Assembly: GCA_026986775.1 (NCBI GenBank)
Contig: JALSNX010000026.1
Location: forward strand, 1 to 64,000
Reading direction: 5' to 3'
Origin: Caldifarciminota bacterium
GTDB lineage: Bacteria > Hydrothermota > Hydrothermia > UBA1063 > CAJXJZ01
DNA length: 64,000 bases
Shown: piece by piece, positions 52,903 through 55,651 of the stretch
Layout: each line of letters begins with the position of its first letter
Position numbering within the stretch: the stretch's first letter is position 1
Notes under the pieces: model-generated
What the model saw: only the letters and a program-made list of their open reading frames with translations
What the model was told of the DNA's origin: nothing
Databases searched by the model: none
Position numbers and translations under genes: made by a program

Positions 52903-55581
52903 TCACACTTCAGGTTTCAAGAACATTTCCGATATAAAAATGGACGGCTCATTACGATACCTTCCATATCTAAATTTAGGATAGGATAAGTAGAGTTTAT
53001 CCTGCGAGCGGGTAATTGCAACGTAAAATAGCCTTCTTTCCTCTTCTATATCCTCATCCTTACCATACCTGCTTAAAAGAGGAAATCTTCCCTCATAAAG
53101 CCCAACCACAAAGACGCATGGAAATTCAAGACCCTTGGCCTGATGAACGGTCATCAATTTAACACCACGCTGACTCTGAGATTCAATTCCAAGAGTTCTC
53201 AAAAGTGCCACATCGTTCTGCAACTTCCTGTGTTCTCCCCTTTTGTATCTGCCGATAAACTCAAGAAATTCCAGAACATTTTCTCTCTCCTGTATGCGGG
53301 CAGAACTTCTTGCCCGTTCAAGCCTTTCAAAATATCCAAATTGCTCAAGAAAACTCTCCACTACCTCAAGGGGTGTCAATTCAGAAAGCAATTTCTCATC
53401 ATAACTTTTTGCAAACTGTTTAAGAACTGAAATGGCGGAATCCGCATTTTCTTTTTCCTCCATGCTTAATCTAATTTTAGTTCTCCTGCCTGTAAATTTT
53501 GAAGCAACATACCTTGAAGTTTTTCCAGAAAGACCAATGAACCTTCTTGCAATAAGTTCCACATCACCATAAGAAGCATTTTTTTCTGCGAGTTTGAGAA
53601 TACCTATTATTGACCGTATTTCTTCTCTCTCATAAAAACCACCTTCACTCTGAAGATTGTAAGGAATATCCTCTCTCATAAAGGTCTCCTCAAAATATCT
53701 GGAATAGGCATTCACCCTGTAAATTACGCTTATGTCGTCATACTGTAAGCCCTTCTCCACTTCTTCCTTGATTGTTTTTGCCACCCATGAGGCTTCTTCC
53801 TCTTCTGAAGTGGCTTCTTTTAAAAGTATAACCCCTTCTGTTTTAGCCATGGACACCATTGGCTTTTTAACCCTTTTTTTGTTAAACGATATGAGTCTTT
53901 CAGCAGTTTCAAGTATCCTCTGTGGAACCCTGAAACTCGTGGTCAGATAGAACCTTTTAACTTTTCCCTCATAGTACCTTTCAAGTTCTTTAATAAATTC
54001 AGGATTTGCCCCGCGAAATCCATAAATTGACTGGTCATCATCACCCGTCAAAAACAGATTTCCATGCTTTTCTGAAAGAATCATAAGCAGGCGAAATTGT
54101 GCCGGGTCAATGTCCTGAAACTCATCAACCAGAATATATCTAAATCTTGATGTAAATTCATCCCGTATGTCTTCAAATTCTTCAAGGACTTTAACGGCAT
54201 ACATGAGTATGTCACCATAGTCCACCATATTCCTTGACATGAGGAGATTCTGATAACTCATATAAACCGTTGCTATACGCTTTTCCCATGACGTCTTTGC
54301 CAGTTTTCTGTAATCTTCCGGGCTTATAAGATTCGTCTTTGCACGGTCAATGGCACGCTTTATACCCTTTGCTCTCCCCGAAGATGAAAGGTTCTCAATT
54401 ATAGAAAGCGCATCCTCAGGGGAAATGATTACAAGGTCTTCCTCACGGAATCCCAATCTATCAGCACCAGCCAGGAAAATTCTCAAAGCCATCTGGTGAA
54501 ATGTACCTGCCCACAGTTTTCTGGTAGCAAGTTCGCCCAGTAAGGACGCCACTTCCATTTTAAGATTGTAAGCGGCTTTTCCAGTAAAAGTAATCGCAAG
54601 AATATTTTCAGGTTTTACATGTTTTTCCCTGATTAAATATACAATACGGCGTGCAAGGGTATAAGTCTTGCCAGTACCAGCACTACCTATAATCAGCACA
54701 ACACCATCGCCATCAAGTACCGCTTCTTCCTGTGCTGGAGTAAGACCTGAAAGAATTTCGCTTTTTTTCGCTCTATCCTCAAGTAATCCAGAGATTTCAA
54801 GCATGTAACCACTCTTTTTAAGTGCATTTATTAACTCCTCACATGACTGAAATCTATCATCAGGCCTTCTTGACATGGCTTTCTTTACCAGATACCAGAG
54901 GTCAGGCGAAAGCCCCCTTATTTTTCTGAGTTTTCCATGCAATATTCTCTGTCTGAGTTCCTCAAAAGACTCACCTTCATAAGGTAATCTCCCTGATAGC
55001 ATTTCATATAAAATAACACCTATTGAGTAAATGTCACTTCTTTTATCATACTCTCCCTTCCATGCTTCAGGTGACATATACACAGGTGTTCCTGCAACAG
55101 ACAGCGAAAGGGAAAGGCCTGTTTTTATTCTGGCAAGACCAAAATCAGTTATTTTAACCTTACCATCATCTGTTAAGAGTATATTCTCAGGTTTTAAGTC
55201 TCTATGCAGAATACCCTTTCTGTGAGCATACCCAACCCCTTGAAGTATCATCTCAACAATAGAAACTGCCTTTTCCATGCCAACTTTTCTCAAACGGTCC
55301 ATATAACTCCTCAAAGACTCACCTTCAACATACTCCATGGTAAGAACAATTCTTCCATCTATCTCCTCAAGGGAATAAAATCTCACTATGTTGGGATGCT
55401 CTAAAGAAGCAAGAACCTTTGCTTCCTGCTTCAACATTTCTATGTCTTTTGCCCTCTGTCTTGAGATTTTAATGGCAAACTCCCGCTCAATAAGCGTGTC
55501 AACTGCTAAAAACACATCGGAAAACTGCCCACCTCCTATCCACTTTATGATTCTGTACTTTCCCAGTCTATCACCTAACAT
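52903..55581 (-). CDS. Fusion of Hanks-type Ser/Thr protein kinase and UvrD/PcrA-type helicase
   Basis: An 892-residue single open frame. Residues 1-262 are a complete eukaryotic-like kinase: glycine loop IGGGQFSDV (15-23), AIK lysine K38, alphaC Glu53, HRDLKPEN (126-133; catalytic D128), DFG (146-148) and SPE (170-172). Residues about 277-892 are an SF1A helicase: Q motif LTPAQEEAV (280-288), Walker A GSAGTGKT (299-306), TFTGKAA, DEFQD (486-490), GDDDQSIYGFRGA (513-525), TTSFRVP, VHQAKGLEFP and RLFYVAITR. Both catalytic sets look intact. No frameshift or stop separates them, and TATAAT lies 6 nt before the ATG. I do not know of a described protein of this type. A kinase that controls helicase loading or phosphorylates DNA-repair partners is plausible but inferred. 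Confidence 0.93.
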   Translation of the reverse strand: MLGDRLGKYRIIKWIGGGQFSDVFLAVDTLIEREFAIKISRQRAKDIEMLKQEAKVLASLEHPNIVRFYSLEEIDGRIVLTMEYVEGESLRSYMDRLRKVGMEKAVSIVEMILQGVGYAHRKGILHRDLKPENILLTDDGKVKITDFGLARIKTGLSLSLSVAGTPVYMSPEAWKGEYDKRSDIYSIGVILYEMLSGRLPYEGESFEELRQRILHGKLRKIRGLSPDLWYLVKKAMSRRPDDRFQSCEELINALKKSGYMLEISGLLEDRAKKSEILSGLTPAQEEAVLDGDGVVLIIGSAGTGKTYTLARRIVYLIREKHVKPENILAITFTGKAAYNLKMEVASLLGELATRKLWAGTFHQMALRIFLAGADRLGFREEDLVIISPEDALSIIENLSSSGRAKGIKRAIDRAKTNLISPEDYRKLAKTSWEKRIATVYMSYQNLLMSRNMVDYGDILMYAVKVLEEFEDIRDEFTSRFRYILVDEFQDIDPAQFRLLMILSEKHGNLFLTGDDDQSIYGFRGANPEFIKELERYYEGKVKRFYLTTSFRVPQRILETAERLISFNKKRVKKPMVSMAKTEGVILLKEATSEEEEASWVAKTIKEEVEKGLQYDDISVIYRVNAYSRYFEETFMREDIPYNLQSEGGFYEREEIRSIIGILKLAEKNASYGDVELIARRFIGLSGKTSRYVASKFTGRRTKIRLSMEEKENADSAISVLKQFAKSYDEKLLSELTPLEVVESFLEQFGYFERLERARSSARIQERENVLEFLEFIGRYKRGEHRKLQNDVALLRTLGIESQSQRGVKLMTVHQAKGLEFPCVFVVGLYEGRFPLLSRYGKDEDIEEERRLFYVAITRSQDKLYLSYPKFRYGRYRNEPSIFISEMFLKPEV

Positions 55582-55587
55582 GTGAGT

Positions 55588-55593
55588 ATTATA
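55588..55593 (-). promoter_or_regulatory. -10 box for the kinase-helicase gene (leaderless)
   Basis: On the minus strand TATAAT occupies 55593-55588, then ACTCAC and the ATG at 55581. The TSS would coincide with the start codon. No SD is present. The -35 is weak (T-rich run). Confidence 0.55.
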
Positions 55594-55623
55594 AAAGAGG
55601 ATAAGTGTTTAAAAAACGAATAG

Positions 55624-55651
55624 AAAAAGAGCAAGGAGGAACTCCCTGCTC
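55624..55651 (-). terminator. Terminator after the clostripain gene
   Basis: On the minus strand, GAGCAGGGAG-TTC-CTCCTTGCTC (10-bp stem with one G-T pair, 55651-55629) is followed by TTTTTC (55628-55623). It is 12 nt after the clostripain stop. Confidence 0.8.

What the first reader, a model, noticed from the sequence alone, without database searches (positions are those of the whole stretch)
52903..55581. Protein kinase fused in frame to a UvrD-type helicase
Seen: one 892-codon frame carries a full Hanks-type kinase (K38, E53, HRD 126-128, DFG 146-148) and a full SF1A helicase (Walker A 299-306, DEFQD 486-490, GDDDQSIYGFRGA 513-525). Known: bacterial eukaryotic-like kinases usually carry membrane or sensor domains. 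I know of no characterised kinase-UvrD protein. Inferred: phosphorylation may gate a DNA-repair helicase, or the kinase may sense DNA structures through it.
Basis: partly seen in the sequence, partly recalled or inferred. Interest (0 to 1): 0.88.

Follow-up and report, generated by a model that had tools for sequence, protein, structure and literature searches.

The report
Kinase-helicase fusion with ARPP-1 partner
One bacterial protein joins a signalling enzyme (a Ser/Thr kinase) to a DNA-unwinding motor; the same fusion has been inherited across at least 63 species of one little-known phylum, almost always together with a second uncharacterised protein, which points to an undescribed DNA-linked signalling pathway.

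Summary
The frame is on the MINUS strand (52903-55581, 892 aa) and holds an intact Hanks-type kinase (9-249) and an intact UvrD/PcrA-type helicase (280-867), joined by a short flexible linker. It is not an assembly artefact: the same architecture occurs once per genome in 63 of 147 genomes of the phylum (candidate division WOR-3 / Caldifarciminota), across 19 families. All catalytic residues of both enzymes are retained, dN/dS is low, and the gene tree follows the family taxonomy. It was not found in about 1,030 sampled genomes of other groups, in 72,556 plasmids, 50,697 phages or IMG/VR. New here: it has a partner. A gene for a cytosolic ARPP-1 (DUF6569, PF20208) protein lies directly beside it, on the same strand, in 37 of the 63 (9 families, both gene orders). 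This ARPP-1 subtype is in 60 of 63 fusion genomes and only 3 of 84 others, all three probably assembly losses. In the window's own genome the partner exists but is unlinked. Best reading: a vertically inherited DNA-responsive kinase whose helicase is the DNA sensor or motor, working with ARPP-1, a predicted cysteine-dependent, sugar-reactive domain. The coupling of the two genes is shown; the biochemistry is inferred. I found no described precedent.

The parts
52903..55581 (-). Kinase-UvrD fusion gene, 892 aa
   Evidence: homologues in 63 of 147 genomes of the phylum
54835..55557 (-). Hanks-type Ser/Thr protein kinase domain, residues 9-249; K38, E53, H126, D128, K130, N133, DFG 146-148 invariant
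   Evidence: Pfam PF00069; conservation in 49 proteins; PknB-like fold, TM-score up to 0.90 by target length
55093..55119 (-). Activation-loop segment 155-163 with hydroxyl residues (S/T at 157, 159 and 161 in most family members); low confidence in the model
   Evidence: match to the PknB T171/T173 region is by hand from memory of the PknB sequence
54745..54813 (-). Inter-domain linker, residues 257-279: variable sequence, near-constant length
53974..54744 (-). UvrD-type SF1A helicase N-terminal part (1A/1B), residues 280-536: Q motif, Walker A 299-306, DEFQD 486-490, motif III 513-525
   Evidence: Pfam PF00580
52981..53949 (-). UvrD_C (2A/2B), residues 545-867: motif IV F550-R551, V H813-K816-G817, VI R858; residues 661-790 (2B core) poorly conserved; no PcrA-type C-terminal extension
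   Evidence: Pfam PF13361
55588..55593 (-). TATAAT, 6 nt before the ATG, no Shine-Dalgarno visible: possible leaderless promoter
   Evidence: sequence; consensus match only
55629..55651 (-). 10-bp hairpin plus T run between the upstream C11-peptidase gene and the fusion; suggests the fusion is transcribed alone in this genome

Best explanation
The gene encodes a cytosolic, DNA-responsive Ser/Thr kinase in which the signal-input domain is an active UvrD-type 3'-5' helicase/translocase, and it works with a cytosolic ARPP-1 protein as a two-gene, vertically inherited module of the WOR-3/Caldifarciminota phylum. Proposed mechanism: the helicase loads on single-stranded DNA (gaps, 3' tails, stalled forks) and translocates; loading, stalling or crowding on DNA brings kinase domains together, which autophosphorylate in trans on the activation loop (as DNA does for YabT) and phosphorylate proteins on or near that DNA, probably including the helicase itself and possibly ARPP-1. 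ARPP-1, with an invariant Cys, Gln, Glu and Arg, acts on or traps a sugar moiety, most simply a damaged or end deoxyribose exposed there. Shown here: both catalytic sites kept under purifying selection, single fusion origin, vertical inheritance, near-constant linker length, and genomic coupling to ARPP-1. Inferred: DNA dependence, direction of control, substrates and the ARPP-1 reaction.
For: Both active sites invariant across 49 fusions, 28-74% identical to the window protein. dN/dS about 0.05-0.14 in both halves wherever dS could be estimated, often saturated. The kinase domain is more conserved (50% mean pairwise) than the helicase core (38-40%; last segment 54%) and far more than the 2B core (21%), so the kinase is not a relic. 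One copy per genome in 61 genomes plus 2 cut by contig ends, 19 families; the gene tree needs the minimum of 16 label changes for 17 families. The UvrD halves form one clade against 51 other UvrDs (100 SH-aLRT), the kinase halves one clade against 22 other kinases (96). ARPP-1 gene adjacent and co-directional in 37/63, 35 upstream and 2 downstream, gaps often under 20 bp or overlapping, with otherwise different flanking genes. Cytosolic ARPP-1 is one clade (99), found in 60/63 fusion genomes and 3 others. C101, Q79, E103, R106 and W142 of ARPP-1 invariant in 72/72. [quoted passage not shown] Precedent for a DNA-activated bacterial Hanks kinase acting on genome-maintenance proteins: YabT (PMC3708118, PMC6333020).
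Against: No biochemical data exist. No DNA-repair gene is conserved next to the pair. In the window's own class (families f1-f7, f11) the two genes are not adjacent, and G047, G049 and G017 have the fusion without a detected ARPP-1 (G047 is rated 98% complete). The weakly conserved 2B region leaves true unwinding open. The co-occurrence is not corrected for phylogeny and could partly reflect one joint gain.
Confidence: 0.4

Rival explanations
1. The helicase is the output: the kinase autophosphorylates in cis or trans and switches the UvrD motor on or off (for example through the variable 2B region or the linker) in response to an unknown signal, and has few other substrates.
For: Short, near-constant linker; the 2B subdomain is known from Rep, UvrD and PcrA to be regulatory (own knowledge) and is here the least conserved domain (21%); a second, separate UvrD exists in the genome.
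Against: No sensor domain is present to feed a signal into the kinase (Pfam). The kinase is better conserved than the helicase core, as expected if it has its own conserved substrates.
Confidence: 0.3
2. It is an anti-phage defence protein, like PD-T4-6 kinases, Gabija GajB helicases or ARG/ARPP conflict systems.
For: Best PADLOC profile matches are GajB for the helicase half and MAD6/PD-T4-6 for the kinase half; ARPP belongs to ARG-centred systems proposed as conflict systems, and a plasmid has such an ARPP-ARG cluster.
Against: Strict one copy per genome, family-congruent tree and phylum-wide retention; none found on plasmids, phages or IMG/VR contigs. Identified neighbours in the window are FeoB, EamA, C11 peptidase, radical SAM and DUF123, with no GajA or BREX/MADS parts. 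ARG is in only 3 of 63 fusion genomes. PADLOC matches of this kind reflect general UvrD and kinase homology.
Confidence: 0.12
3. The module handles ADP-ribose or ADP-ribosylated DNA, with ARPP-1 acting on the ribose and the kinase-helicase opening or marking the modified DNA.
For: ARPP-1 was named for its association with ADP-ribosylglycohydrolases and is predicted to act on ribose of ADPr.
Against: Only 11 of 147 genomes, and 3 of 63 fusion genomes, have an ADP-ribosylglycohydrolase; the window's genome has none. Macrodomains, NADAR and DarT were not tested.
Confidence: 0.1
4. The two domains are joined only for co-expression or co-localisation and do not influence each other.
For: The linker sequence is not conserved and is predicted flexible.
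Against: Fused in every detected member across 19 families, with near-constant linker length and conserved partner gene; no stand-alone close relative of either half was seen.
Confidence: 0.08

Closest known systems
YabT of Bacillus subtilis (DNA-activated Hanks kinase)
   Same: Bacterial Hanks kinase without an extracellular sensor; DNA-dependent activation linked to genome maintenance (PMC3708118, PMC6333020), which I propose here by analogy
   Different: YabT has a basic DNA-binding stretch and a membrane anchor, not a motor helicase; no ARPP-1 partner known
RqkA of Deinococcus radiodurans (DNA-damage-responsive kinase)
   Same: Bacterial Ser/Thr kinase tied to the DNA damage response (PMC6052341)
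   Different: No helicase fusion is described in the sources seen
PcrA / UvrD / Rep SF1A helicases
   Same: Full helicase motif set and fold; best PDB matches 1pjr, 3lfu, 1uaa
   Different: Forms a separate clade, scores far below the PcrA, UvrD and Rep equivalog cut-offs, lacks the C-terminal extension, has a divergent 2B core, and carries an N-terminal kinase
PknB/StkP-type kinases
   Same: Closest bacterial solved kinase folds
   Different: No PASTA repeats found; helicase in place of the sensor part
ARG-centred ARPP systems (PMC9503650, Viruses 2022)
   Same: Contains ARPP-1; [quoted passage not shown]
   Different: Partner is a kinase-UvrD fusion, not listed among the published ARPP partners in the passage read; no ARG in most genomes; slow vertical evolution

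Membership tests
Hanks-type (eukaryotic-like) Ser/Thr protein kinase | Gly-rich loop, VAIK Lys, alpha-C Glu, HRDxKxxN, DFG, APE-like Glu, all present and conserved | tested here: met
   Pfam PF00069 189.9 bits against a cut-off of 31.7
Hanks-type (eukaryotic-like) Ser/Thr protein kinase | Phosphotransfer activity | not testable with these tools
   needs purified protein
SF1A UvrD/PcrA/Rep helicase superfamily | Q motif, Walker A, DExx box, motifs III-VI in order with UvrD_C | tested here: met
   fold match to 1pjr, E=3.7e-45
PcrA (TIGR01073), UvrD (TIGR01075), Rep (TIGR01074) equivalogs | Score above the curated equivalog cut-off | tested here: not met
   436 vs 911, 336 vs 1144, 381 vs 951 bits
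Gabija (GajAB) | GajB helicase encoded next to a GajA OLD-family nuclease | tested here: not met
   genes on both sides in the window are EamA and C11 peptidase; no OLD nuclease among the neighbours scanned
BREX PglW / MADS MAD6 kinases | Score above the NCBIfam equivalog cut-off | tested here: not met
   MAD6 179 vs 460; PglW 107 vs 990 bits
ARG-centred ARPP conflict system | ADP-ribosylglycohydrolase encoded with ARPP | tested here: not met
   ARG in 3 of 63 fusion genomes, none in G000
ARPP-1 (PF20208), the partner | Pfam score above cut-off; invariant Cys and Gln | tested here: met
   208-248 bits against 27; Cys, Gln, Glu, Arg invariant in 72/72
DNA-activated bacterial kinases (YabT-like in function) | Autophosphorylation stimulated by DNA | not testable with these tools
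   functional analogy only

The most novel reading that the evidence does not exclude
A bacterial DNA-damage checkpoint built as a self-contained pathway: ARPP-1 recognises or covalently traps a damaged DNA sugar, the UvrD motor reads the DNA around it, and the fused Ser/Thr kinase signals to the cell, as an addition or alternative to RecA-LexA signalling across much of a phylum.
Probability: 0.15. Interest if true: 0.92.

Novelty: new variant of a known kind. Interest (0 to 1): 0.77.

Why it matters
Bacterial Ser/Thr kinases usually sense through membrane or ligand-binding domains; a kinase whose only other domain is an active DNA motor would be a direct molecular link between DNA state and protein phosphorylation. 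The strict pairing with cytosolic ARPP-1 gives that uncharacterised family a concrete partner and a testable DNA context, and the module is an old, vertically inherited feature of a phylum known here only from metagenome assemblies, so it can be tested with two heterologously expressed proteins.

Tried and rejected
Assembly chimera: rejected, 60+ other genomes. Degenerate kinase or helicase: rejected, all catalytic residues invariant and low dN/dS. Mobile or phage-borne element: not found in plasmids, phages or IMG/VR and the tree follows taxonomy. Gabija, BREX or MADS member: cut-offs or partners missing. ARG-centred system: ARG nearly absent. Conserved partner in the window itself: the radical SAM, C11 peptidase, FeoB and EamA neighbours are shared only within the genus. 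GIG motif scan of 2B: my pattern was too strict to be informative (found in 7 of 78 ordinary UvrDs). ARPP-1 in viral contigs: none. ARPP-1 relative in PDB: none. Searching other groups: the two searches around L012 and L014 drew nearly the same genomes, so they count once.

Full report
What is there. The finding's coordinates hold one ATG frame of 892 codons on the minus strand; the plus strand is closed by many stops. Pfam places Pkinase at 9-249, UvrD-helicase at 280-536 and UvrD_C at 545-867. No PASTA or other sensor domain is found. NCBIfam scores the helicase half far below the PcrA, UvrD and Rep equivalog cut-offs. The upstream region has a 10-bp terminator hairpin after the C11-peptidase gene and a TATAAT six bases before the ATG with no Shine-Dalgarno, so in this genome the gene is probably transcribed alone, perhaps as a leaderless message.

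It is a real, widespread family. A translated search of all 147 held genomes of the phylum with a profile of the family finds a full-length or contig-cut fusion in 61 (scores 763-1214 bits), plus two cut by contig ends (G059, G130): 63 genomes in 19 families, one copy each. The phylum is identified through L010, a candidate division WOR-3 bacterium that the taxonomy tool places in Caldifarciminota; L009 and L010 appear to be the same contigs as G048:C2 and G047:C60 (equal lengths), so they are counted once. UvrD-only proteins reach at most 587 bits, so the classes are well separated. No fusion was found in about 1,030 genomes of other groups: about 274 around L012/L014, 199 around L019, 198 around L015, 300 around L011 and 58 around L018. 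Those searches score only a few best candidates per genome, so weak, independent kinase-UvrD fusions elsewhere are not excluded. tblastn found no record with 80% coverage among 72,556 plasmids or 50,697 phages, and IMG/VR gave only single-domain relatives.

Both enzymes are maintained. In 49 aligned fusions K38, E53, H126, D128, K130, N133, D146-F147-G148, T165, E172 and D183 of the kinase never vary, nor do G299, G302, G304-K305-T306, D486-E487, Q489-D490, Q517, R523, F550-R551, H813, K816-G817 and R858 of the helicase wherever the sequence is present. Most carry Ser/Thr at activation-loop positions 157, 159 and 161. Mean pairwise identity is 50% for the kinase, 38-40% for the helicase core, 54% for the last helicase segment, 21% for the 2B core and 14% for the linker. 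dN/dS, where synonymous change is not saturated, is about 0.05-0.14 for both halves. The linker keeps its length (26-37 residues between positions 250 and 280). AlphaFold2 gives mean pLDDT 89 with low confidence in the activation loop and linker; the halves match PcrA 1pjr and PknB.

Origin and inheritance. The helicase halves form one clade against 51 other UvrDs, including the same genome's second UvrD; the kinase halves form one clade against 22 other kinases. The fusion tree needs 16 changes of family label for 17 families, the minimum possible. This fits vertical inheritance of a single fusion event within the phylum, unlike a defence island gene. The trees are quick searches with SH-aLRT support only.

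The partner. Clustering of genes around the fusion in 20 genomes plus the window showed one neighbour shared between unrelated families. It is ARPP-1, PF20208, also named DUF6569. Scanning the phylum and comparing positions, an ARPP-1 gene lies beside the fusion, on the same strand, in 37 of 63 genomes and 9 families: 35 upstream and 2 downstream (f28, f29), often within 20 bp or overlapping (two gaps reach 865 and 1006 bp). Retained adjacency despite changed order and changed flanks argues for a functional link. ARPP-1 proteins split into two clades (99 SH-aLRT): cytosolic ones of about 300 aa, and ones mostly with a signal peptide or N-terminal extension. The cytosolic type is in 60 of 63 fusion genomes whether linked or not, including the window's genome (G000:C27:222000-222860), and in only 3 of 84 others: G021 and G046, congeners of fusion genomes in fragmented assemblies, and G092, where it sits 324 bp from a contig end exactly where the fusion would follow. 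For any ARPP-1 the raw table is 60/3 against 21/63, Fisher p = 2.5e-19, not corrected for phylogeny. The cytosolic type was read directly for 40 sequences and taken for the remaining fusion genomes from adjacency, frame length and score. Cys101, Gln79, Glu103, Arg106 and Trp142 (numbering) are invariant in 72 of 72.

What ARPP-1 may do. Published analysis (PMC9503650) describes ARPP as unrelated to characterised domains, with absolutely conserved Cys and Gln, predicted to act on sugar moieties and perhaps to cross-link like the SRAP domain; [quoted passage not shown] A kinase fused to a 3'-5' SF1A helicase is a further DNA-linked partner, not listed in the passage read. ADP-ribosylglycohydrolase is in only 3 of 63 fusion genomes, so this is not an ARG-centred system.

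Mechanism. I favour a DNA-responsive kinase in which the helicase is the sensor or motor and ARPP-1 handles a DNA sugar or end, by analogy with YabT, whose autophosphorylation is activated by DNA and which phosphorylates RecA and SsbA (PMC3708118, PMC6333020). The reverse direction of control, with the kinase gating the helicase, is almost as likely. Defence, ADP-ribose metabolism and mere tethering are less likely, for the reasons given in the rivals.

Novelty. Each part belongs to a known family; the architecture, its phylum-wide vertical retention and its pairing with cytosolic ARPP-1 have no precedent in the searches made. The library lacks most subscription papers, and UniProt architectures could not be queried, so the architecture may well be listed in domain databases even though no described role was found.

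Noticed in passing
G000:C27:222000-222860 (L213): The window genome's own cytosolic ARPP-1 (DUF6569) gene, the proposed partner, lies on another contig, not next to the fusion.
   Followed up: yes
L199-L208, L222-L227, L231, L232 and others: A second clade of ARPP-1, mostly with signal peptides or N-terminal extensions (about 320-470 aa frames), occurs in this phylum independently of the fusion and keeps the same invariant Cys, Gln, Glu and Arg.
   Followed up: partly
L273 (Pimelobacter plasmid NZ_CP097985.1): ARPP-1 (DUF6569) followed by a short hypothetical gene, an ADP-ribosylglycohydrolase and a TM0106-like RecB nuclease: an ARG-centred cluster on an actinobacterial plasmid.
   Followed up: no
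window 55581-55600: TATAAT six bases upstream of the ATG without a Shine-Dalgarno: possible leaderless transcription in this organism.
   Followed up: no
window 52902/52903: The convergent EamA transporter gene ends on the base next to the fusion's stop codon, with no intergenic space.
   Followed up: no
L012 (JAIXLE010000256.1): Record titled 'Bacteroidales bacterium' draws the same phylum sample as a Gemmataceae genome and its genome holds dozens of kinase matches: the title's taxonomy is probably wrong.
   Followed up: no
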